Source: Spirochaetota bacterium
GTDB lineage: Bacteria > Spirochaetota > Spirochaetia > Treponematales > UBA12059
Length of the DNA stretch: 32,585 nt
Direction of reading: 5' to 3'
NCBI GenBank assembly: GCA_022703215.1
Contig: JAKLEE010000005.1
Coordinates: forward strand, 1-32,585
Below, piece by piece: positions 1 to 21,662 of this stretch. The notes beneath the pieces were generated by a model, which was not told the DNA's origin, made no database searches, and saw only the letters and a program-made list of their open reading frames with translations. Position numbers and translations under genes: made by a program. The stretch's first letter is position 1, and each line of letters starts with the position of its first letter.

Positions 1-1697
1 CAGCGCGGGCGGGGGCCGGAACCAGGATCGCGCTCGATGGCGTAGGGGTTCGCCGCCACCCGTGATATCGGCAGCCAGTCCGCGCCAGCGAGCACCCCCC
101 CGAAGGCGGGCGCCACGCGGTCGTCGCCATAGCCGAGGGCGGCCAGATGGAAATAATCGCGGACGCCGTCCGGCTTGTTGCAACGCACGGACAGCTCGGC
201 GATGCTCGCGTCCACCACGCGCGCGAGGTATTCGGCCCGCGTACGGCCGGCCGAATACGCTACATCCATGGAGCCCGAACGGTCGAGCAGGAAGAGGACG
301 AGAGTGGGCCTGACCCGGCTGATGGCGGCCGAGTAGGCCGGTCGGACGCGCGGACCTGCGGCGGCCTCGGCGCGCGGCGGGGCCGGTGTCCAGGCGGCAG
401 GCCCGGGATCCCGCGGGGAGACTGGATCCGCCTGGACCGGAACGTAGAGCTCCTCTCGTGCGGCTCCGTTTCTCCGCGGTACGGCGAGGTCAGCCTCCTC
501 CACCGCATCCACGGCATCCACTGCGGCGTCCGCGGTGACCATCGGCGCTTCGACCGGGGCCGGCTCCTCGGCGACCGCCTGAGCGGGGACCTCGGGCGCG
601 TCGGCAACCTGCGGATCGGACACGGTGGGTGAAGGCGGCGCCGCCGAGACGTGCGGAGGAGTCGCGGGAATCGCGTCCATGCGGCCGGCGCGGCCGAGCG
701 ATTCGAGCCCTTCGCGTACGAGGGCGCTCATGTTGGCCGCCAGGGCCGCGAAGTCGAGCTGGGAACCCGTCCCCGCCACCTCCACCTCGAACTCGACGTC
801 GACGCGGTCGCGTTTCGGGTCGGCCAGCGCCGCCACGATTTCCTGCACCGCGTCGCCCCTGACCCGCGCCGAAACGAGGCGCGAAAGGAGGGCGTCGGAT
901 AGCACGTCGCGGCCAAAGCCGGAACTCCGGCCCTGCTGCAGCTCGGCCGAGAGGCGCTCGATCTCCGCGAGGCTCTCGCCGAGGCGGGCATCGACCGAGC
1001 CGATCTCGTCGACCAGGAAGGCGAGCGGTCCCAGGTTGTCGCGGAGCATGCCGTCGAACGAGAGGGCGAGGGCCGTCATCTCGGCGATCTCGCGCTCGAG
1101 CTTCGAAAGGTCGCGGTTGAATTCGTACACTTCGCGGTAGAGCGCCACGTCGCCGCGCAGCTTCTCGTGCACGAGGCGTTGCTTGTCGTCGTCGCTCGCG
1201 AGCGTCTCGAGCGCGTCGAGGGCGTGGCGGAGCTTGCGGACTATGAGGACGCTGGCGCGCGTCAGGTCCATGGCCAAGGCGCGCACGCGCTCGCGCCCCT
1301 CGTCCATGGCCGCGTCCGCCTCGGCCCGACCGAGGCCGGCAACCTTGGCCGCGAGCGCGAGCCTGCGCTCCTCAGCCTTCTCGAGTTCGGCGAGCCGCCT
1401 CGCGAATTCGCCCTGGACGCCCTCGCCGATCCGGCCGAACACCTCGCGGCACTGGTCGATGCGGCCCCGGAGCAGGGTGATGAGGGCGTCGTAATTGGCG
1501 ACGAGGCCCTCCATGAGCGCGAGCCGCTCTTCCGGCAGCAGCGCGGGCTTCCGCGCGATGGCGAAGATGCCGCGGGCCTTTCCCTCGGAGGCGATGCGCT
1601 CGCGCGCTTCGCGGATCTCGTCCTGCAGGCGTTCGAAGCGCTCATCCTTGATCCGGGGGAATTCGTACGCCGTGCCGAGCACCATGATCTCGTTCAT
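1..1697 (-). CDS. Coiled-coil protein with C-terminal VWA domain (partial, runs off the window)
   Basis: The reading frame is open from ATG at 1697 to the window edge (565 codons, no stop), so the C-terminus is missing. Residues about 1-330 are charged and helical (coiled-coil-like). A Pro/Ala-rich linker covers about 350-455. A VWA domain starts near residue 462 with a MIDAS motif, LLDRSGSM, close to residue 470. The following RDYFHLAALGYG and GGVLAG stretches resemble the bacterial subfamily of small regulatory VWA proteins with a conserved RDYFxxxxxGYG segment. VWA domains bind a divalent metal and usually mediate protein-protein contacts. The start overlaps the stop of the upstream transglutaminase-like gene as ATGA (1697-1694), which implies translational coupling and joint function. 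The partner is unknown. The VWA call is firm; the function is not. Confidence 0.8.
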   Translation of the reverse strand, partial: MNEIMVLGTAYEFPRIKDERFERLQDEIREARERIASEGKARGIFAIARKPALLPEERLALMEGLVANYDALITLLRGRIDQCREVFGRIGEGVQGEFARRLAELEKAEERRLALAAKVAGLGRAEADAAMDEGRERVRALAMDLTRASVLIVRKLRHALDALETLASDDDKQRLVHEKLRGDVALYREVYEFNRDLSKLEREIAEMTALALSFDGMLRDNLGPLAFLVDEIGSVDARLGESLAEIERLSAELQQGRSSGFGRDVLSDALLSRLVSARVRGDAVQEIVAALADPKRDRVDVEFEVEVAGTGSQLDFAALAANMSALVREGLESLGRAGRMDAIPATPPHVSAAPPSPTVSDPQVADAPEVPAQAVAEEPAPVEAPMVTADAAVDAVDAVEEADLAVPRRNGAAREELYVPVQADPVSPRDPGPAAWTPAPPRAEAAAGPRVRPAYSAAISRVRPTLVLFLLDRSGSMDVAYSAGRTRAEYLARVVDASIAELSVRCNKPDGVRDYFHLAALGYGDDRVAPAFGGVLAGADWLPISRVAANPYAIERDPGSGPRPR

Positions 1698-3118
1698 CGC
1701 CCGCTCTCCCACGCGACCTCGAGGCGGTCGCCGTCGAAACTGTAGCTGCCGAGTTCCCAATCGAGCACGAGCCAGCGCTCGCCCGTCGACCGGTCGAGCG
1801 TCGCGGCGAGCGACGGCGCGCGGCGGCCGGCGGCTCGGGCGACGCGTTCGAGCACCTCGTCGGCAATCGCGCCGTTTCCCACCCAGGCCTCCGCCCATGC
1901 GTGCCCGGAGCTTCCCTTGATGCCGTGGACGATGCGCGCCCGGCCGCCCACCGCCACGACGCAGGATGCGACGAGCGCGGCGAAGTCGTCGCAATCTCCG
2001 GCGAGGCCGAGCGCCAGGCTACGTCGCGCGGGGCTCGTGTAGTCGGTCCACGACACGGCCGGATCGGACACGTACTTCCACCCTGAGGCCACAGCCGCGT
2101 GCACGAGCACGAGTTGCCTCGCCCCCGCGGCGTTCGGGAGCCGCGAACCTTGGGGCTCGTCCCAGGCGCCGGGAGCCGCCGAGGCGGCCTTTACCGCGAA
2201 GTCGCGCACGACCGGATCGGCGGGCTGCACGGCCCTGTCGTAGCGCCCGCCCGCCACGAGGGGCAGGTCGCGTTCGAGCCGGCCTTCCATTTCGGCCAGG
2301 GCCGCGCGGGCTGCCGCGAGCTCGACCTCGAGCGCCGCCCCGCCTTCCGCCGCCCGGGCGAGCGCGGCCTTGTCGGCTTCCGCCCGTTCGAGGCGCTCGG
2401 AGAGCTCGGCGAGGGCCTTTTCCTTTTCCGCGAGCGTCGCGTCCTTCCCCTCGAGCGCACGCCGGACGGCGGCCTCCACCTCCGGGTTACGATACTCGGC
2501 GCCGAAGCTCGCGGCCACCGAGCGGAGCGCCGCTTCGACGCTGGAGGAATCGAGCTTCGTCGCGCTCTCGGGAAACGGGTCGAGGCCGGCGAGCACGATC
2601 AGTGCCGCGAGGCCGAGGGCCGGCGGCAGCAGCAGTCCCGGTCCGGCTCCGAGCCGCGCGATGCGGCCGGCCAGATTGCCCGAAACCACCGCGAGCGCGC
2701 CGGCGAAAAGCGCGGGTCCGACCTCGGCGAATGGCGCGAAGCGGAACAGCGAACGCCGCACGCCCTCGAGCCCCGGCAACTCGAACGCTCCCGCGAAGAG
2801 CAGCACGCCCGCGGCGAGTCCGGAGAGCACCGGGAGCGCCTTCCGCACCGTGCCGAAGAGGGCGGCGAGGAGGAAGCATGCGGCGAAGGCCAAAAGCAGG
2901 ATGCCGCTCTCGCCGAACGCGCCGAACGCGCTCCGGGCGAAACCCGCGGGTCCCGTCACGCCGAAGGCCGCGAGCGCGGGCGACGCGAGGAAGGCGAGGC
3001 CGAGAAGGGCGAGGAAATCGCCTGCGCGCTCGTGGCGCGAACGAGCGGCGGGAGCGGGTACCCCACCCGTGACGTCAAAGCCTGTTCCGCGTCGGGTTTC
3101 TGCCATGCGTTCATCCAT
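1694..3118 (-). CDS. Membrane protein with coiled coil and transglutaminase-like domain
   Basis: The N-terminus has about five hydrophobic segments within the first 210 residues. An Ala/Glu-rich coiled coil follows, then a C-terminal transglutaminase-like (papain-fold) domain. The catalytic triad is visible: Cys in AGDCDDFA, His in SSGHAWAE about 30 residues later, and Asp in LVLDWE near the C-terminus. Such domains act as cysteine proteases or cross-linkers, often in the envelope. The frame is open to an ATG at 3166, but that codon lies inside the -10 box at 3170-3165. The start is therefore more likely ATG 3118 (MDERMAE) or ATG 3106, which has a weak GGA upstream. The gene is coupled by ATGA to the VWA gene. 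The pairing recalls clusters in which transglutaminase and VWA proteins occur together, but no MoxR ATPase is visible here. Confidence 0.8.
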   Translation of the reverse strand: MDERMAETRRGTGFDVTGGVPAPAARSRHERAGDFLALLGLAFLASPALAAFGVTGPAGFARSAFGAFGESGILLLAFAACFLLAALFGTVRKALPVLSGLAAGVLLFAGAFELPGLEGVRRSLFRFAPFAEVGPALFAGALAVVSGNLAGRIARLGAGPGLLLPPALGLAALIVLAGLDPFPESATKLDSSSVEAALRSVAASFGAEYRNPEVEAAVRRALEGKDATLAEKEKALAELSERLERAEADKAALARAAEGGAALEVELAAARAALAEMEGRLERDLPLVAGGRYDRAVQPADPVVRDFAVKAASAAPGAWDEPQGSRLPNAAGARQLVLVHAAVASGWKYVSDPAVSWTDYTSPARRSLALGLAGDCDDFAALVASCVVAVGGRARIVHGIKGSSGHAWAEAWVGNGAIADEVLERVARAAGRRAPSLAATLDRSTGERWLVLDWELGSYSFDGDRLEVAWESGR

Positions 3119-3164
3119 CGGAAAGCGTTCGACCGCGCGCCGACGGCGCGCGCCCGGCCAGTCC

Positions 3165-3192
3165 ATTCTACGCCATCAGCGCGCGAAGGCAA
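3165..3192 (-). promoter_or_regulatory. Promoter of the transglutaminase-VWA operon
   Basis: On the minus strand TTGCCT (3192-3187), a 16-bp spacer and TAGAAT (3170-3165) resemble a housekeeping sigma-70 promoter. The start of transcription would fall near 3158, downstream of the first possible ATG at 3166. It lies only 25 bp past the stop of the upstream 136-aa gene, so read-through from the sigma-54 operon is also possible. Confidence 0.5.
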
Positions 3193-3216: not shown

Positions 3217-3627
3217 TCAGCGGGGAACGAAGCGCAACACCTCGGGTCCGAGCGGAGGGAGGAAGGTCATGGTGGCGCCTCCCCGGAGCACGCAGTCTAT
3301 CCGCGCGTCGAGGAGGCAGGCGCGGGCTGCCGCGAGGCACACCTCGTGTTCGGTGGCGGCGTCGAGGAAATGACAGGAGTACACGGCGCGCCCGTCCTCC
3401 GCGACTGCCCTGAGGCCGGCCACCTCCCCGCGGCGAATCTTGTCGGTCAGCTCGCCGTGATCGAGTATGGAGAAGACGATCGCCAGCTCGTACAGCCAGC
3501 GCTCGGTCCGCGCGCGCGCCGCCCGGGGAGCCAGGCGCGAGCGCCGTTTCCTTTTCCGCGGCGGCGCCGGGACCCGTCCTTCACTCTCCGGGGCGCCCGG
3601 AACCGCCTCGATCACACAGGTATCCAT
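3217..3627 (-). CDS. Hypothetical protein, second gene of the PrsW operon
   Basis: I do not recognise this 136-aa protein. The first 40 residues are Pro/Arg/Lys-rich with a strongly basic cluster (RKRKRRSR). The rest looks like a compact mixed alpha/beta domain containing several Cys residues (YSCHF, EVCLAAARACLL, IDCVL). There is no signal peptide and no clear membrane segment. Two ATGs are possible. The one at 3627 (MDTCVIEA) has AGGAG at 7 nt, while the one at 3633 is too close to it. The gene begins 38 bp after the PrsW stop on the same strand, so it is probably co-transcribed from the sigma-54 promoter at 5034-5050. It could be a substrate, adaptor or regulator of the protease; that is inference from position only. 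Confidence 0.6.
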   Translation of the reverse strand: MDTCVIEAVPGAPESEGRVPAPPRKRKRRSRLAPRAARARTERWLYELAIVFSILDHGELTDKIRRGEVAGLRAVAEDGRAVYSCHFLDAATEHEVCLAAARACLLDARIDCVLRGGATMTFLPPLGPEVLRFVPR

Positions 3628-3665
3628 CTTCATGCTCCTCCAGCTCCATTCCCGAAGCGCCGCGC

Positions 3666-5012
3666 TCAGCTCCTGCGCGCGACGTTCCCGAAGCGCTTCC
3701 AGACCGCGTCCGGATTCCGGTAACGCGTCTCGGCGAGCGCGGTCCGCCGGGACGAATAGCGCTTCCCCCCGCTCCGCTCGGCTATCGCGTCGCGGACATC
3801 CGGGTCACGGTGCGTCTCGCCGGGCGCCCTCGGCCGCCGCCAGTCCCGCTCGCGCGACGCGGGCGCGGCATCGCGGAAATTCATTCCGAGCAGGGCCCAG
3901 GGCTCGCGCGGATGGGCGATCGGATCCGGGAGGGGAAATGCCGCCTTGCCGATGAGGGGTTCGAGGATTGCCAGGGCCGTCCGCTCGTCCTTGCCCGCCA
4001 TCGTCCGCACGGTCCGGACAAAAGCCTCGCGGCTTCCCTCCGGCATCCTCCGCCACGCGTCCTCGAGCTCCTCGCGCGCGTCAGCCTCGCCCGAGACGAG
4101 GCGCGCCGCCGCCCACAGGGCTTTCGAGTAATGCCCGCCGCCGGGTGCTAGATACGCGGCGCGGAACGACGCCGCGGAGCGCACCCAGTCGCCCCCCGCA
4201 GCGAGGTAGATTCCCTGCCTGAGCAGGAGGGTCCGGCTGCGGGGATCGAGGGCGAGCCCCCGCCCGATCGCCTCGAGCGCCTTTACGCGCTCGGCCACCG
4301 GATAGGCGCGGTAGGGAGAATGCCGCCCCGCCTCGCGCACGAGCCTGGCCAGGGCGAACGCGACCAGAGCGTCCCAGAGGAACGCCGTCATCCCCGCGTG
4401 GTACGCGATGGTGTTGTGGAGGCCGTGCGCCAGGCTCGCGGCCGCGACGCCCAGGACGGGCAGGCCACGCCACAGGCGCTCGGCGCGAACCTCGCCCCAG
4501 TAGAGCGTCCCGCCCCAGACCGCGCCCGACAGCGCGGTGTACGCCATGTGCCCGCCCAGTTCCGCAAGCGAGCGGATCGCAATGTTCGCCACCCCGAAAT
4601 CGAGCCCGTAGAAGAAGTTCTCGACGAGCGCGAAGCCGAGTCCGACCGTCGCGCCGTGCAGCGCCCCGTCCAGTGGCTCGCGGTACGCCTTCACCAGCCT
4701 GGTGGCGAGGTAGAAGGCGAGGAATTTCGCGAACTCTTCGGAGACCGCGACGAAGAGGGTGTAGTAGAGGAAGCTCGCGACGACGCCGTCGGTCGCGTCC
4801 GCGAACACCCAGAGGCCGTTGATGCCATAGGCGAACACCGAGAGCGGGGCGCTCGCCATGCCCGCCAGCACGAAGACCGGCAGCCACGCGACGCGGCGCT
4901 TCCTGGGCGCGTAGCGATCCCTGCGCGACAGCCAGGTCGACCACCCGACGAGCGCCGCAAGGTCGATGGCGAGTATCGCGATTACTCCGAGCGCGGCTTC
5001 CCAACCCGTCAT
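3666..5012 (-). CDS. PrsW-family intramembrane metalloprotease with C-terminal TPR-like tail
   Basis: This 448-aa protein has about eight hydrophobic segments and all the PrsW signatures: SEEFAK (residues ~91-96), GLGFALVENFFYG (~125-137), GGHMAY (~153-158) and AHGLHN (~195-200). The conserved Glu and His residues form the active centre in this family, whose Bacillus member cleaves the anti-sigma factor RsiW in the membrane. After the membrane domain, residues ~240-360 look like helical TPR-type repeats, followed by an Arg-rich tail. The start is ATG 5012 (MTGWEA), with AGGAGG at 5 nt. An upstream in-frame ATG at 5051 lies in the promoter and is rejected. The gene is divergent from an RtcR-like sigma-54 activator and carries a sigma-54 promoter. 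The substrate is unknown. Confidence 0.88.
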   Translation of the reverse strand: MTGWEAALGVIAILAIDLAALVGWSTWLSRRDRYAPRKRRVAWLPVFVLAGMASAPLSVFAYGINGLWVFADATDGVVASFLYYTLFVAVSEEFAKFLAFYLATRLVKAYREPLDGALHGATVGLGFALVENFFYGLDFGVANIAIRSLAELGGHMAYTALSGAVWGGTLYWGEVRAERLWRGLPVLGVAAASLAHGLHNTIAYHAGMTAFLWDALVAFALARLVREAGRHSPYRAYPVAERVKALEAIGRGLALDPRSRTLLLRQGIYLAAGGDWVRSAASFRAAYLAPGGGHYSKALWAAARLVSGEADAREELEDAWRRMPEGSREAFVRTVRTMAGKDERTALAILEPLIGKAAFPLPDPIAHPREPWALLGMNFRDAAPASRERDWRRPRAPGETHRDPDVRDAIAERSGGKRYSSRRTALAETRYRNPDAVWKRFGNVARRS

Positions 5013-5033
5013 CGCATCCTCCTGCCAGAGAAT

Positions 5034-5050
5034 AAGCAAGAACCTTGCCA
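5034..5050 (-). promoter_or_regulatory. Sigma-54 (-24/-12) promoter of the PrsW operon
   Basis: On the minus strand the sequence reads TGGCAAG (5050-5044), GTTC, TTGCTT (5039-5034). The consensus is TGGCACG-N4-TTGCW, so only one defined base differs and the spacing is exact. With C of TTGC at -12, transcription would start near 5024-5026. That is just upstream of the AGGAGG ribosome site and ATG 5012. A sigma-54 activator gene lies divergently 270 bp away, which strengthens the call. Confidence 0.75.
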
Positions 5051-5165
5051 CGGGATGTCAGTTTTGGGACTTAATCGCCACGAATGCTCTCGGACCATTA
5101 ATTCCAGTCAGGCCTTTGACTTGCCGGCCCGTACGCACACCCTCGCACGCCCCTCGGAGCGCGAA

Positions 5166-5245
5166 GGAACCGCGGGCCGAACCATGCCCGCCCGTCGCGT
5201 GGCGTCGAGACGCAACCGCGGTTCCGCCCGGGCAACGCGGGTTGC
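5166..5245. promoter_or_regulatory. Candidate upstream activating sites for the sigma-54 activator
   Basis: Two 14-bp dyads share the form GCAAC-N4-GTTNC: GCAACCGCGGTTCC (5212-5225) and GCAACGCGGGTTGC (5232-5245). Their starts are 20 bp apart, about two helical turns, so they would face the same side of the DNA. A third, half-conserved copy, GGAACCGCGG (5166-5175), is the exact inverse of 5216-5225. The full sites lie about 195-215 bp upstream of the PrsW transcription start, within the usual range for bacterial enhancer sites. They also sit ~75-110 bp before the activator gene, so autoregulation is possible. Nothing else is visible in the 5051-5300 gap. Confidence 0.5.
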
Positions 5246-5320: not shown

Positions 5321-7006
5321 ATGGCACTCAGCGACGATTCCGGCGGGAACTACCGCGTCCTCCTCACCTTCGTGGGCAACCACGACCCGCGCGGGGCGGA
5401 CTCCGACGAATACGGCCCCGTCCTCTCGCTCCTCGAAGCGAAGCCCTTCGACCGGGTCGTCATTTACTGCACGGGACCCGAATACGTCGAGCGTGCCCGC
5501 GCGGTGCAGGCGGAGGCCGAGGCCTGGGGATTCGCAGGCGCCTTCTCGTTCGTGGACCTCGAACTCGAGTCGGTCATCGACTACGCGGAAATCTATCCCA
5601 AGCTCCGCGACCTGACCGGACGCGTCATCGAGTCACTCGAGGTGGACGATCCGGACCTGTCGATACTGCTCGACCCGGGGACGCCGCAGATGCAGACCTC
5701 GTGGTTCCTGCTCGCGCGCTCGGGCCTCGTGCGGGCCCGGCTGCTCCAGGGCGTGCCGCGGCGCTTCTCGGGCGGAGCCTACAAGGTCCGCGAAGTCGAC
5801 CTCGACGGCGCGGACCTGCCGCTGGTCACGATCACGGATCATTCGATCAAACCGGAATCGCCCGTCGTCCTCTTCCAGCCTGACTGGCATGGACCTTACA
5901 GGGGGAGCTTTTACAAGCTCGACGGCCTCGGGACGGCGGAGGATACGGGAAGCGCGGCGACGGAGCGCGGGCGCGCGGGCGCCGAATGGTTCGTCGCCGA
6001 CCTGCCCGCCTTCACCGTGCGCGACGGGGCCATGCTCGAGCTCTTCGGGCGCGCCGCGCGGGTGGCCGCCTATGACAACCCGATCCTCCTGCTCGGCGAG
6101 ACGGGGGTCGGGAAAGACGTGCTCGCCCGCTTCATCCAGGCGCGTTCGCGCCGCTCCGACGGCCCCTTCGTCATCCTGAACTGCGCGGCGATCCCCCGCG
6201 AGCTGGTCGAGAGCGAGCTCTTCGGCCACGCCCGCGGAGCCTTCACGGGGGCCGAGCGCGAACGGCTCGGGAAATTCCGCTCCGCCGACGGCGGCACCCT
6301 TTTCCTCGACGAGATCGGCGACCTTCCCCTCGAGGTGCAGCCCAAGCTGCTCCGCGCGCTCGAGCAGGGCAGCTTCGCGCCCGTGGGTTCGGATCGCGAG
6401 GTCCGCGCGGACGTCCGGCTCGTCGCAGCCACCAACCGCGACCTCGCCTCGATGGCGCGCTCCGGGACCTTCCGCGCCGACCTGCTCGGCCGCGTCGCGG
6501 GCATCGAGCTCCGCATCCCGCCGCTCCGCGAACGCCGCTCGGAGATAGTTCCTTTGGCGGAAGGTTTCCTGGAAGCCTGGAACGGGCGCTACGACGAGGA
6601 CAAGCGTTTCGCGCCCGACTTGCTCCGCGCCCTCGAGTCGCGCGACTGGCCGGGCAACATCCGGGAGCTCCGCAACGCGGTCGAGCGCATGGCCGCCATC
6701 GCGCTCGGCGACGAGCTGGGAGAGGAGTTGCTGGAGCAATCCGGCGCCGGCCTTCCCGCGCGCGGCTCCGGCGGCACCTGGTTCGCGCCGGAGGCATCTT
6801 CCGGTCGCGGCCGGATTCCCGAGGGCGGCATGGACCTCAGGGCCTGGTTCTACGCGGCCGAGCGCGAGTTCTTCCGCGAGGCGCTCGAACGCGCCGGCGG
6901 CAAGCGCGAGCGGGCGGCAGCCCTGCTCGGACTCAAGGCGCCCGCTTTCCGCAAGGCGCTCAGGGAGCGCTTTCCCGAGCTCTCGGATCCGATCATCGAC
7001 GAGTGA
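5321..7006 (+). CDS. RtcR-like sigma-54-dependent activator with N-terminal CARF domain
   Basis: This 561-aa protein has three parts. Residues ~10-170 resemble the CARF domain of RtcR: LLTFVGNHDPRG at the start, and LLDPGTPQMQTSWFLLARS (~116-134) followed by RARLLQG, corresponding to the ligand-site region of RtcR. Residues ~235-460 are an AAA+ sigma-54 activator domain with Walker A GETGVGKD (259-266), GAFTGA (306-311), Walker B TLFLDE (326-331), sensor AATNRD and WPGNIREL (443-450). Residues ~510-550 form a Fis-type helix-turn-helix. RtcR responds to RNA ends bearing a 2',3'-cyclic phosphate, and other CARF domains bind cyclic oligoadenylates. The ligand here is unknown. No rtcBA genes adjoin it; the divergent PrsW operon with a sigma-54 promoter is the likely target. 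The arginine-finger region reads FRADLLGR rather than the usual FRxDLYYR. Confidence 0.9.
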   Translation: MALSDDSGGNYRVLLTFVGNHDPRGADSDEYGPVLSLLEAKPFDRVVIYCTGPEYVERARAVQAEAEAWGFAGAFSFVDLELESVIDYAEIYPKLRDLTGRVIESLEVDDPDLSILLDPGTPQMQTSWFLLARSGLVRARLLQGVPRRFSGGAYKVREVDLDGADLPLVTITDHSIKPESPVVLFQPDWHGPYRGSFYKLDGLGTAEDTGSAATERGRAGAEWFVADLPAFTVRDGAMLELFGRAARVAAYDNPILLLGETGVGKDVLARFIQARSRRSDGPFVILNCAAIPRELVESELFGHARGAFTGAERERLGKFRSADGGTLFLDEIGDLPLEVQPKLLRALEQGSFAPVGSDREVRADVRLVAATNRDLASMARSGTFRADLLGRVAGIELRIPPLRERRSEIVPLAEGFLEAWNGRYDEDKRFAPDLLRALESRDWPGNIRELRNAVERMAAIALGDELGEELLEQSGAGLPARGSGGTWFAPEASSGRGRIPEGGMDLRAWFYAAEREFFREALERAGGKRERAAALLGLKAPAFRKALRERFPELSDPIIDE

Positions 7007-9431: not shown

Positions 9432-11474
9432 CTAGACCCCGTCGTCCGCCAGCAGATCCTCGAGGCGGACGCCGCGACGAGCGCGCCGGAAACGCTCCAC
9501 GTACCAATAGAGCGCGGGATCTTTCGGGAAGCGGCGGGCGCAATCCTTGAACGCCGCAAGGGCGCCGACGAGGTCACCGGACTCAAGCAGGAATACCGCA
9601 CGCTCGAAGACGCCCCGGTTATGGAGCTTCTCCGCGGCGAGCGGATCCACGTCCTCGCAGATGAGCTCGTAGGTCGGAACCGTGGCGGCCTTGCCCTTGA
9701 GGCGAATCTGCCCGAGGTAGCGGAGGGTGAACTTGGCCCGGGCGTCGGCGCAGCGTTCGAGGGCGGGGCCGGAAACGATGATCGGCACGCGGAAGCGCTT
9801 GGTCAGGTCCTGGAGCCGGCTCGTCACGTTCACCGCGTCCGAGATGACGGTGGTGTCCATGCGCTCGACCTCGCCGATGGTCCCGAGGATGAGGTCGCCC
9901 GCGTGGATTCCGATGCCCATTTCGACCGGCTTCTTGCCCCAGCCCAGGCGTTCCTGGTTGTACCGGACGACTATCCGCCTGATGTCCTGGGCGGCCGCGA
10001 GCGCGTCGGCCGAGCCGCCGGGGAAGATGGCCATCAGCGCGTCGCCCATGAACTTGTCGACCAGGCCGCCCTGGGCGCGCACCGCCGGCACGATGCGTCC
10101 GTAGAAGCCGTTCAGGAAGCGGAACACGTCGTCGGCGCCCATCTCCTCCGAGAGGCCGGTGAAGTCGCGGATGTCGGCGACGATCACCGCCATCTCGGCC
10201 AGGGCCTGGTCGCCCAGCTCCACCTCGTCCACGCCGTCGCGCCCGAGCAGCTCGATGAATTCCGAGGGGACGAAGCGCGAGAACGCCTCGTTGAGGGATT
10301 GCAGCTTGCGCGTGCGGTCCTCGATCTCGGCCCTGGATTCCTCGAGGTCGTCCTTGGACTTGAGCGAAAGCCGGCCGAGCGCCAGGAAGATGCCAAGGTC
10401 CAGGGCGAACAGGCCCGGTCCCGCCAGCCAGATCATCGGCCTCATTCCCGACAGGAACCAGGCGCCGTCCCAGAGCGAGCAGGCGATGCCGATCAGGAGG
10501 CCGATGGACACGGTCGCCGCGCCGGCGACCTTCCGGCGCCAAGCAAGCACGGCGATCAGGCCGGCATACAGGAAGGCGAGCAAGGATGGCGCCACGGCCA
10601 GGGACAGCGCGGCGTCGAGCTTCACGTCGTCACCCGCCGACCAGGCGACCCAGGCGGAGGCGGCCGCGAGGACCAGCGCCCAAGCCCAGCCCGAACGGAG
10701 CCGCTTCCGCTTCGAGTAAGAACGACCGGCGAACAGGAGGGTGAAGAGCGCGGCAAGCGGCAACGAGGCCTTCGCGGCGCCCCTGAGCGCGTGGTAGGGC
10801 ACCCAGAGCGAAGGCAGGCCGAATTCCGCGAAGAACACGGCGAAGGTCATGGAAGCGAGACCGAAGAGCAGGTAGCCCGCCTCGCGCAGGGCGTACCATT
10901 GCATGAACATGACCAAGGCGGCGAAGAGGCTGGCGGCGGTCATGAACACGTAGATCGTAGTGTTGAGGGGTCTGATCAGCTTCCGGACGAAGCCGGCCCT
11001 CGCCGCGTCCACCGCGTGCACTGCCGGGAAGGGAGCCGCGTCGCCTTCGTAGCGGCACGCGAGGACCAGCCGGTCGGTCCCGTCGAGCTTGAGGAGCCTG
11101 GTCGGAATTTCCAGGATGGGCGTAGCCTCGGCGTGGGCCCAGTACCCGTCGGGTCCGAGCGCGCCGTACGAGCCCACCGGAATGCCGTTTACCGTGGCGC
11201 GGAAGGGCACCTGGCTGCGGCCGATTTCGATGTAGACGGTGTCGCCCGAACGCAGGACCTCGCGCGGCAGGTCGCGGGCCAGCGAGAAGCGCTTGGACTC
11301 CCCGAGCGCGATGCCCGCGGGAAGGTCGATACGCTCGGAGCCCTGGCCGCGTTCCAGCAACCAGCCTTTCCCGAGATCGAGCGAGCCGGAGCCCGGTTCG
11401 TCGACGCAGGACGCGAGCAACGCGACGGCGAGCGCGATCGACGGCAACAGGACCTTGCGGCGGGCTCTCATCAT
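9432..11474 (-). CDS. Membrane adenylate cyclase with seven-helix (7TMR-DISM-like) sensor
   Basis: This 680-aa protein begins with a lipoprotein-type signal (MMRARRKVLLPSIALAVALL, then ASC). A periplasmic beta-rich sensor domain of ~160 residues follows, then about seven membrane helices (~165-370), a short coiled coil (LEESRAEIEDRTRKLQSLNE), a class III cyclase domain and a C-terminal TPR-like tail. Catalytic features are visible: metal-binding Asp residues in VADIRDFT and FMGDALMA, Lys in VDKFMGD and Asp in ISDAVNVTSR. The Lys/Asp pair specifies ATP, so the product is probably cAMP. ATG 11474 or 11471 fits the promoter at 11513-11485; the earlier TTG at 11513 is part of that promoter. It is the last gene of an operon running from 14666. 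Confidence 0.9.
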   Translation of the reverse strand: MMRARRKVLLPSIALAVALLASCVDEPGSGSLDLGKGWLLERGQGSERIDLPAGIALGESKRFSLARDLPREVLRSGDTVYIEIGRSQVPFRATVNGIPVGSYGALGPDGYWAHAEATPILEIPTRLLKLDGTDRLVLACRYEGDAAPFPAVHAVDAARAGFVRKLIRPLNTTIYVFMTAASLFAALVMFMQWYALREAGYLLFGLASMTFAVFFAEFGLPSLWVPYHALRGAAKASLPLAALFTLLFAGRSYSKRKRLRSGWAWALVLAAASAWVAWSAGDDVKLDAALSLAVAPSLLAFLYAGLIAVLAWRRKVAGAATVSIGLLIGIACSLWDGAWFLSGMRPMIWLAGPGLFALDLGIFLALGRLSLKSKDDLEESRAEIEDRTRKLQSLNEAFSRFVPSEFIELLGRDGVDEVELGDQALAEMAVIVADIRDFTGLSEEMGADDVFRFLNGFYGRIVPAVRAQGGLVDKFMGDALMAIFPGGSADALAAAQDIRRIVVRYNQERLGWGKKPVEMGIGIHAGDLILGTIGEVERMDTTVISDAVNVTSRLQDLTKRFRVPIIVSGPALERCADARAKFTLRYLGQIRLKGKAATVPTYELICEDVDPLAAEKLHNRGVFERAVFLLESGDLVGALAAFKDCARRFPKDPALYWYVERFRRARRGVRLEDLLADDGV

Positions 11475-11484
11475 TATGACAGGC

Positions 11485-11513
11485 AGACTATCCGGCCCCC
11501 GACACGGCGTCAA
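11485..11513 (-). promoter_or_regulatory. Internal promoter for the adenylate cyclase
   Basis: TTGACG (11513-11508), a 17-bp spacer and TAGTCT (11490-11485) lie at the 3' end of the TIGR02757 gene. The -35 box overlaps that gene's stop codon. The -10 box is only a 3/6 match. Transcription would begin near 11478, almost at the ATG, with no Shine-Dalgarno. Confidence 0.4.
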
Positions 11514-19868: not shown

Positions 19869-21632
19869 TCAGGACAGGCCGACGACGCGGCCCGTCTCGA
19901 CGTCGATGTCCATGCCCAGGTAGCCCGGTTTCGAGGGCAGGCCCGGCATGGTCGTGATCTCTCCGGAAAGCGGGTAGATGAAGCCGGCCCCGGCCGCCAG
20001 GCGGAGGTCGTTGACCGGGAAGACGAAGCCCTTCGGCGCGCCCTTGAGCGCCGGGTCGTGAGAGAGCGAGTACTGGGTCTTGGCCATGCACACGGGCAGC
20101 TTGTCGTAGCCGAGCGAGCTCCAGGCCTCGATGGCCTTCTCCGCCTCCGCCGAGTACTCGACGCGCGAGGCGCCGTAGACGCCCGTCGCGATGCGCTCGA
20201 TCTTTTCCTTGACGGAAAGTTCGAGGGGATAGAACGGCTGGACCTTGGAAGGAAGCTCGGCCGCCTTCGCGACCGCGCGGGCCAGGTCCGCGGCGCCCTC
20301 CCCGCCTTCGGCGAAGTTGTGCGTCACCACCGCGTCGACGGCGCCCGCCTTGGTCGCCGCCTCGCGGATCAGGTCCCATTCCGCCTGGCTGTCGGTCGGG
20401 AAGGCGTTGATGGCGACCACCGCCGGCACGCCGAACGAGCGCAGGATGCCCAGGTGGGCTTCGAGGTTGGAAAGGCCCTTGCGGAGCAGCTCGACATCCG
20501 GCGAGGTGTACGCTGCCGCGAGCGGTTTGCCGGGCGTCACCTTGGGGCCGCCGCCGTGCATCTTGAGGGCGCGCACCGTGGCCACCAGCACCGCGGCGTC
20601 CGGGTACATGCCCGAGGTGCGGCACTTGATGTCCACGAATTTCTCGAAGCCCATGTCGGCGCCGAAGCCGCTCTCGGTCACTACGTAATCCGCCACGCGA
20701 GAGGCCACCAGGTCGGCCAGCACCGACGAGTTGCCGTGCGCGATGTTGGCGAAAGGCCCCGCGTGCACGAAGGCCAGCTGCTCCTCGAGGGTCTGCAGGA
20801 TGTTCGGCTGTATGGCGTCCTTGAGCAGCACGGCCATGGCCCCGGCGACGCCGAGGTCCTCGGCGGTGACGGGCTTTCCGGAGGTGTCGCGCGCCATGAC
20901 GATGCGCCCGAGCCGCTCGCGCAGGTCCTTGAGCGAGGTGGCCAGCGCCAGGATGGCCATGACCTCGCTGGCCACCGCGATGTCGAAGCCGCTCTGGCGC
21001 AGGGGGCCGTCGTCCAGGTCGCCGAGGCCCACCATGACGTTGCGGAGCGCGCGGTCGTTCATGTCCATGACCCGGCGCCACTGGACCGCGTACGGGTCGA
21101 CGTGGAGCTTCCGGAGGTCGAGCTTCTCGAAGTAGGCGTCGGACCAGCGCGACTCGTGGTACATGCGCGCGTCGAGGGCCGCGGCCGCCAGGTTGTGGGC
21201 CGCCTGCACCGCGTGGTTGTCGCCGGTCAGGTGGAGGTTGAAGTCTTCCATGGGGACGATCTGGGAATAGCCGCCGCCGGCGGCGCCGCCCTTGATGCCG
21301 AAGGTAGGTCCCATCGAAGGCTGTCGTATGGCGCAGGCGGCCTTCTTGCCGATGGCGCCGAAGCCCTGCGCCAGCCCCACCGTGGTGGTGGTCTTGCCCT
21401 CGCCGAGGGGCGTCGGCGTGATGGCCGTGACGTCGACGTACTTGGCGCGCTTGGGCTTCGCGGCCGCCTCGTTCACGAACTCGAGGCGCACCTTGGCCTT
21501 GCCGCTGCCGAAGGTCTCGAGCGCGGAGGCGGGAATGCCGTACTCGCCCGCCACCTCGACGATGGGCCGGATTTTCGCGGCCTGGGCGATGGCGATGTCG
21601 CTCGGCACCGGTTTCTGCTTGATGACGGACAT
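19869..21632 (-). CDS. fhs: Formate-tetrahydrofolate ligase
   Basis: The 587-aa product matches Fhs along its length: P-loop TPLGEGKTTTTVGLAQG, RQPSMGPTFGIKGGAAGGGYSQ, NLHLTGDNHA, GADMGFEKFVDIKCR and the C-terminal GEITTMPGLP. It makes 10-formyl-tetrahydrofolate from formate, ATP and tetrahydrofolate. This supports purine synthesis or, in acetogenic spirochaetes, the methyl branch of the Wood-Ljungdahl pathway. ATG 21632 (MSVIKQK) is chosen because GGAGG lies 7 nt before it. The ATG at 21638 is only 1 nt from that site. It is the first gene of the fhs-tpx unit. Confidence 0.97.
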   Translation of the reverse strand: MSVIKQKPVPSDIAIAQAAKIRPIVEVAGEYGIPASALETFGSGKAKVRLEFVNEAAAKPKRAKYVDVTAITPTPLGEGKTTTTVGLAQGFGAIGKKAACAIRQPSMGPTFGIKGGAAGGGYSQIVPMEDFNLHLTGDNHAVQAAHNLAAAALDARMYHESRWSDAYFEKLDLRKLHVDPYAVQWRRVMDMNDRALRNVMVGLGDLDDGPLRQSGFDIAVASEVMAILALATSLKDLRERLGRIVMARDTSGKPVTAEDLGVAGAMAVLLKDAIQPNILQTLEEQLAFVHAGPFANIAHGNSSVLADLVASRVADYVVTESGFGADMGFEKFVDIKCRTSGMYPDAAVLVATVRALKMHGGGPKVTPGKPLAAAYTSPDVELLRKGLSNLEAHLGILRSFGVPAVVAINAFPTDSQAEWDLIREAATKAGAVDAVVTHNFAEGGEGAADLARAVAKAAELPSKVQPFYPLELSVKEKIERIATGVYGASRVEYSAEAEKAIEAWSSLGYDKLPVCMAKTQYSLSHDPALKGAPKGFVFPVNDLRLAAGAGFIYPLSGEITTMPGLPSKPGYLGMDIDVETGRVVGLS

Positions 21633-21662
21633 GGGCATTCCTCCCTAACGGATCATCTGTTG

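What the first reader, a model, noticed from the sequence alone, without database searches (positions are those of the whole stretch)
5034..5050. Near-perfect sigma-54 promoter in front of PrsW
TGGCAAG-GTTC-TTGCTT differs from the consensus at one defined base, with exact spacing. The predicted start falls just before the ribosome site. This also settles the PrsW start codon at 5012 rather than 5051.
Basis: partly seen in the sequence, partly recalled or inferred. Interest (0 to 1): 0.65.

Follow-up and report, generated by a model that had tools for sequence, protein, structure and literature searches.

The report
CARF-sensor-controlled sigma-54 promoter of protease operon
The DNA switch spotted in front of a membrane-protease gene looks genuine, and the gene next door makes its probable operator: a protein with a sensor domain like those of CRISPR immunity, so a nucleotide alarm signal may turn on a protease operon in these spirochaetes.

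Summary
Confirmed, and larger than reported. TGGCAAG-GTTC-TTGCTT (5050-5034, minus) matches 12 of 13 defined sigma-54 bases with exact spacing. By sequence alone it is unexceptional (about 4 one-mismatch sites expected genome-wide, 4 seen), but its position is not (4.5e-4 expected in this intergenic region), and it is a conserved island in three species (16/17, against 53/148 in the spacer). rpoN is present.

The missed part: the divergent gene 5321-7006 encodes a sigma-54 activator whose N-terminal CARF domain is closest to cyclic-oligoadenylate-binding Csm6. Between the genes lie two GNAAC-N4-GTTNC palindromes 20 bp apart; this tandem occurs once in the genome and recurs beside diverged CARF activators in Spirochaetota. 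Of 21 such loci, 12 have a divergent sigma-54 site (shuffles: mean 0.12). Targets differ: PrsW plus transglutaminase-like here; P13-like, beta-barrel, PEGA or WYL-transglutaminase proteins elsewhere. One relative is contiguous with a complete type III-B CRISPR locus.

Best reading: a CARF-sensing activator binds the tandem operator and switches on PrsW-P138-transglutaminase through sigma-54. The signal is open: this genus shows no Cas10 or RtcB, and its CARF has Gln where half the aligned relatives have Lys.

The parts
5034..5050 (-). sigma-54 promoter (-24/-12), TGGCAAGGTTCTTGCTT
   Evidence: one mismatch to consensus; 16/17 identical in three species
5018..5023 (-). ribosome-binding site AGGAGG, right at or just after the predicted transcript start (about 5024)
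   Evidence: read directly; conserved in three species
3666..5012 (-). PrsW-family intramembrane protease, first gene of the operon
   Evidence: PF13367 E 3.1e-20; orthologues next to the activator in G001 and G002
3217..3633 (-). P138, 138-aa protein of unknown family
   Evidence: no Pfam match; conserved in order in G001 and G002
1694..3166 (-). membrane protein with transglutaminase-like (papain-fold) domain, GDCDD and HAWAE present
   Evidence: PF01841 E 1e-7; motifs; homologues beside other CARF activators
3..1697 (-). fourth open frame of the operon, runs off the contig; VWA-like stretch by eye, no Pfam match
   Evidence: its G002 counterpart has only a sub-cutoff VWA match
5212..5225 (.). 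operator palindrome GCAACCGCGGTTCC
   Evidence: unique tandem in own genome; conserved
5232..5245 (.). operator palindrome GCAACGCGGGTTGC, 20 bp from the first
   Evidence: conserved
5321..7006 (+). CARF-AAA+-HTH sigma-54 activator, divergent from PrsW
   Evidence: PF00158 E 7.6e-62, PF06956 E 1.2e-5; PADLOC RtcR_PspF2--CARF_AAA_HTH E 2.7e-115; GAFTGA; CARF fold

Best explanation
5034-5050 is the promoter of a PrsW-P138-transglutaminase-like operon, read by sigma-54 polymerase. The divergently encoded CARF-AAA+-HTH protein binds the tandem GNAAC-N4-GTTNC operator about 190-220 bp upstream of the predicted start. When its CARF domain detects a nucleotide ligand (a cyclic-oligoadenylate-like molecule or an RNA end), its AAA+ ring assembles, the DNA loops, and the GAFTGA loop remodels the closed complex. 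Shown by sequence: promoter, operator, domains, conservation, family-wide co-occurrence. Inferred: binding, activation, ligand and operon read-through. Also inferred: the output is envelope remodelling or self-sacrifice under attack or RNA stress, by an intramembrane protease and a papain-fold enzyme.
For: rpoN present. Promoter and operator are conserved islands in the genus. The tandem operator occurs once in the own genome, at this place; 11 places in 8 of 16 genomes with a CARF activator, 0 of 4 without. 12 of 21 core loci have a divergent sigma-54 site, shuffle mean 0.12, max 2. Domains, GAFTGA, CARF fold nearest to Csm6. A relative lies in a complete type III-B locus.
Against: No expression or binding data. 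9 of 21 core loci lack a divergent site at <=2 mismatches and 7 of 21 lack any AACN4GTT palindrome within 500 bp; 8 of 16 activator genomes lack the strict tandem. One-mismatch sites are as frequent genome-wide as chance predicts. This genus lacks detectable Cas10, so no source of the ligand is known. The leader would be very short.
Confidence: 0.75

Rival explanations
1. [quoted passage not shown]
For: The window's clade has Gln after GTPQM where the other clade has Lys; RtcR-family CARFs mostly lack the basic residue (PMC4012209, passages); [quoted passage not shown] No Cas10 in the genus. PF06956 RtcR matches.
Against: Fold and profile are nearest to cyclic-oligoadenylate-binding Csm6; no RtcB in 3 of 3 genomes of the genus; far below the RtcR equivalog cut-off.
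Confidence: 0.35
2. A real sigma-54 promoter driven by another of the genome's activators, the CARF neighbour being incidental.
For: The genome has seven strong activator domains, this one included.
Against: The tandem operator is unique in the genome and tracks the CARF activator in other genomes; gene order is conserved in the genus.
Confidence: 0.08
3. A chance match; PrsW is transcribed from an ordinary promoter.
For: One-mismatch sites are as frequent genome-wide as chance predicts; three of the other four best sites lie inside ORFs of 100 codons or more.
Against: Position, conservation island, adjacent activator, family-wide recurrence.
Confidence: 0.05

Closest known systems
RtcR and its rtcBA operon (E. 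coli, Salmonella)
   Same: CARF-AAA+-HTH activator, sigma-54 promoter, divergent target operon (PMC7790460, passages)
   Different: Target is PrsW-P138-transglutaminase-like, not RtcBA; no RtcB in the genus; below the RtcR equivalog cut-off; CARF nearer to Csm6
RtcR-like CARF-AAA-HTH proteins outside Rtc systems (PADLOC RtcR_PspF2; PMC4012209, PMC11090510)
   Same: Same domain order; PADLOC model E 2.7e-115
   Different: Reported partners are restriction-modification genes and CoCoNuTs (passages); here PrsW, P13-like, beta-barrel, PEGA and transglutaminase-like genes, with a defined operator
CalpL-CalpT-CalpS
   Same: A nucleotide signal leads to a transcriptional response through a sigma factor, with a protease in the path (PMC11229360, passage)
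   Different: There the protease is the sensor and frees a sigma factor; here, on my reading, the sensor activates sigma-54 and a protease is the product
Csa3
   Same: CARF-controlled transcription factor (PMC9704534, passages)
   Different: CARF-HTH without AAA+; not a sigma-54 activator

Membership tests
sigma-54 promoter | GG and GC elements 10 bp apart within TGGCACG-N4-TTGCW | tested here: met
   12 of 13 defined bases, exact spacing
sigma-54 promoter | rpoN in the genome | tested here: met
   PF04552 E 3.2e-54
sigma-54 promoter | transcript start about 12 nt after the GC element | not testable with these tools
   no RNA data
sigma-54 activator (bEBP) | AAA+ domain with GAFTGA and an HTH | tested here: met
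   PF00158 E 7.6e-62, PF02954 HTH_8 E 1.6e-4 at 21.8 bits, just under its 22-bit cut-off; GAFTGA
CARF superfamily | CARF Rossmann-like fold at the N-terminus | tested here: met
   profile match to Csm6 E 9.2e-6; Foldseek top hits Csm6, Csm6', Cam1, Cad1
CARF superfamily | binding of a cyclic oligonucleotide | not testable with these tools
   basic residue after strand 4 is Gln in the window's clade
RtcR proper | NCBIfam RtcR equivalog cut-off | tested here: not met
   319.7 against 650 bits
RtcR proper | RtcB partner in the genome | tested here: not met
   0 of 3 genomes of the genus
type III CRISPR accessory | Cas10 in the genome | tested here: not met
   none over cut-off in 3 of 3 genomes of the genus; own genome is 87% complete; met in relatives G009, G036, G358
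PrsW (glutamic-type intramembrane protease) | PF13367 domain over gathering score | tested here: met
   73 against 23.5 bits; below the narrower PrsW equivalog cut-off, 47.8 against 225 bits

The most novel reading that the evidence does not exclude
A second-messenger immune or alarm pathway of spirochaetes in which a CARF sensor acts through sigma-54: a CARF activator with its own dedicated tandem operator switches on envelope effectors. In some species it works inside type III CRISPR loci; in others, as here, it has been freed from CRISPR and rewired to an intramembrane protease plus papain-fold operon.
Probability: 0.35. Interest if true: 0.8.

Novelty: new variant of a known kind. Interest (0 to 1): 0.62.

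Why it matters
It gives a testable wiring diagram (sensor, operator, promoter, targets) for a group of CARF activators whose targets were mostly unknown, names an operator that can be searched for in other genomes, and suggests that CRISPR-type nucleotide signals can reach the cell envelope through sigma-54 transcription rather than by direct activation of an effector.

Tried and rejected
Considered and rejected: (1) genome-wide rank of the site as proof: counts equal chance. (2) A third palindrome-like element at 5160-5175: not conserved in the genus. (3) RtcAB regulation: no RtcB in the genus. (4) Local type III CRISPR in this genus: no Cas10 over cut-off; the sub-cutoff hits align to one end of the models and the palm2 model also rings in E. 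coli, so I take them for GGDEF-type cyclases (inference). (5) A fixed target gene for the activator family: targets differ, and searches left several divergent genes without any family (for example L035:8388-9074, L036:2837-3421, L029:20-646). (6) Extra tandem operators at L030:8757 and L035:11934: the genes they serve are not settled; the one at L125:245 overlaps no long gene on its own strand and lies just outside the end of the 277-1470 frame opposite, so whether it serves that WYL-transglutaminase-like gene is also unsettled. (7) The first genus alignment used the wrong strand for two rows and was replaced; the first promoter filter had an index error and was replaced. Rows dropped before counts: L045 (near copy of L044), L050 (weak hit), L108-L112 (CARF score 35-50) and L039, L040 (weak hits) are not in the 21 core loci; L038 (truncated CARF) is in the 21 but not in the 20-row tree.

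Literature: searches (PrsW and CARF together: two papers, both unrelated by title; PrsW with sigma54/RpoN terms: none of the 12 listed papers holds PrsW; 848 matched and were not all seen; listings) showed no description of this pairing. The 2020 CARF classification is not held, so a description there cannot be excluded.

Full report
Observation. The minus-strand site 5050-5034 reads TGGCAAGGTTCTTGCTT, one mismatch from TGGCACGNNNNTTGCWT, with GG-N10-GC spacing. The genome has rpoN and seven strong sigma-54 activator domains. Scanning the own genome gave 1 exact, 4 one-mismatch and 34 two-mismatch sites; composition predicts 0.1, 4.2 and 81, and the reversed pattern gave 91 at <=2 mismatches. 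The site therefore shares ranks 2-5, but its match quality alone is what chance delivers in 3 Mb. What is not chance is the place: 4.5e-4 such sites are expected in this 308-bp intergenic region.

Conservation. Across the three, the 17-mer is identical at 16/17 positions, the operator region 5212-5245 at 27/34, the spacer 5064-5211 at only 53/148 and the leader 5013-5031 at 10/19. Promoter and operator are islands in drifted DNA.

The neighbour. The divergent gene 5321-7006 is a CARF-AAA+-HTH protein: PF00158 E 7.6e-62, PF06956 RtcR E 1.2e-5, PADLOC RtcR_PspF2--CARF_AAA_HTH E 2.7e-115, with GAFTGA, GETGVGKD and GTLFLDE. A profile of 19 relatives matches Csm6 in the PDB (E 9.2e-6); the AlphaFold model (mean pLDDT 82) is closest to Csm6 bound to a cyclic hexa-adenylate analogue (E 3.3e-8), then Csm6', Cam1 and Cad1. 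It is not RtcR proper: 319.7 bits against a 650-bit cut-off, and RtcB is absent from 3 of 3 genomes of the genus.

The family. A search with the CARF part found matches in 16 of 58 relatives, and with the alignment in 15 of 392 genomes of the phylum at E <= 1e-8, so it is rare. For 21 core loci (L045, L050, L108-L112, L039 and L040 left out, see Tried and rejected), 12 have a divergent sigma-54 site with <=2 mismatches within 500 bp upstream of the CARF start (200 shuffles: mean 0.12, max 2) and 6 have one facing the activator itself (mean 0.13, max 1). The window and its two genus mates have no such self-facing site.

The operator. Ten of the 21 core loci carry two AACN4GTT palindromes 20-22 bp apart upstream of the CARF start; L046 and L037 have one within the 500 bp searched; L029 has one farther up, between two exact sigma-54 sites, and L030 has the tandem upstream of a beta-barrel gene just ahead of the activator. 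Seven of the 21 (L043, L049, L028, L032, L033, L034, L038) showed none. The strict pattern GNAACNNNNGTTNC-N(5-9)-GNAACNNNNGTTNC was then searched in 20 genomes that I chose: exactly one place in the window's own genome, at 5212-5245; 11 places in 8 of the 16 genomes with a CARF activator; 0 of 4 genomes without one; the reversed control gave one place. Eight of the 11 lie upstream of the activator or of the gene just ahead of it. The other three are at L125:245 beside a WYL-transglutaminase-like gene, between Cas_APE2256 and Cas6 genes (L035:11934) and at L030:8757; what they serve is unsettled. This links operator and activator without knowledge of the HTH specificity; that the protein binds there is inference.

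Targets. In this genus the promoter faces PrsW (PF13367), P138, a transglutaminase-like membrane protein (PF01841) and a long fourth frame that runs off the contig. Elsewhere the divergent gene is P13-like (PF05628: L032, L034, L037, L038), a beta-barrel (L044, L047; L030 ahead of the activator), PEGA (L107), WYL plus weak transglutaminase-like (L028) or a transglutaminase-like membrane protein (L048). Transglutaminase-like homologues also follow the activator in L043, L046 and L047. L031 shows an N-formylglutamate amidohydrolase some 400 bp beyond its site, which does not fit the envelope theme, and several divergent genes have no family. The theme is mostly, not wholly, envelope or secreted proteins. 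In L034 and L047 the divergent gene was assigned by position; no site with <=2 mismatches was found there.

CRISPR link. In G009 the activator and its P13 module are contiguous with an adenosine deaminase carrying a CARF-like N-terminus, Cas_APE2256, Cas6, Cmr1-6, a TM1812-type protein, Cas1 and a CRISPR array. In G039 the activator is followed by Cas_APE2256 and Cas6. Clear Cas10 matches were seen in 3 of 16 activator genomes (G009, G036, G358) and none over cut-off in the window's genus. The tree splits activators into two supported halves (100/100): one with the window, the transglutaminase-linked loci and L107; the other with the P13 and CRISPR-linked loci (midpoint root). The first half has Gln after the GTPQM/GTPQI motif, the second Lys. 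This leaves the ligand of the window's protein open: cyclic oligoadenylate by kinship, or an RtcR-type RNA end by the missing basic residue.

Known context. Makarova 2014 (PMC4012209; passages read) described RtcR-like CARF-AAA-HTH proteins outside Rtc systems, often near restriction-modification genes, and predicted sigma-54 activation. CoCoNuT loci carry RtcR homologues (PMC11090510; passages). CalpL and Csa3 are known routes from the signal to transcription (PMC11229360 and PMC9704534; passages). The 2025 CRISPR classification (PMC12669027; passages) does not hold the word RtcR. I found no held paper pairing CARF activators with PrsW (listings). The finding is a new variant of a known kind.

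Start codon. With +1 near 5024, GTG 5051 cannot be on the sigma-54 transcript; ATG 5012 with AGGAGG is favoured. The very short leader (about 12 nt) is unusual and worth checking.

Noticed in passing
L113 (G009:C63:230000-248000): Complete type III-B CRISPR locus with Cmr1-6, Cas6, Cas1, a Cad1-like adenosine deaminase, a TM1812-type protein and an array of 36-nt repeats, contiguous with a CARF sigma-54 activator and a P13-like gene.
   Followed up: partly
L029:595-803: Two exact sigma-54 consensus sites face apart around a single GTAAC-N4-GTTCC palindrome.
   Followed up: no
L006:805 (G000:C73:1230-1246, minus): Another one-mismatch sigma-54 site lies upstream of and facing away from a second activator gene of the same genome.
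   Followed up: no
window 9432-11513, minus: Membrane protein with 7TMR-DISM and an adenylate/guanylate cyclase domain, 2.4 kb beyond the activator gene.
   Followed up: no
window 19869-21638, minus: Formate-tetrahydrofolate ligase.
   Followed up: no
L038 (G033:C6): CARF activator apparently truncated or frame-disrupted (CARF match only about 60 residues) beside a P13-like gene that still has a one-mismatch sigma-54 site.
   Followed up: no
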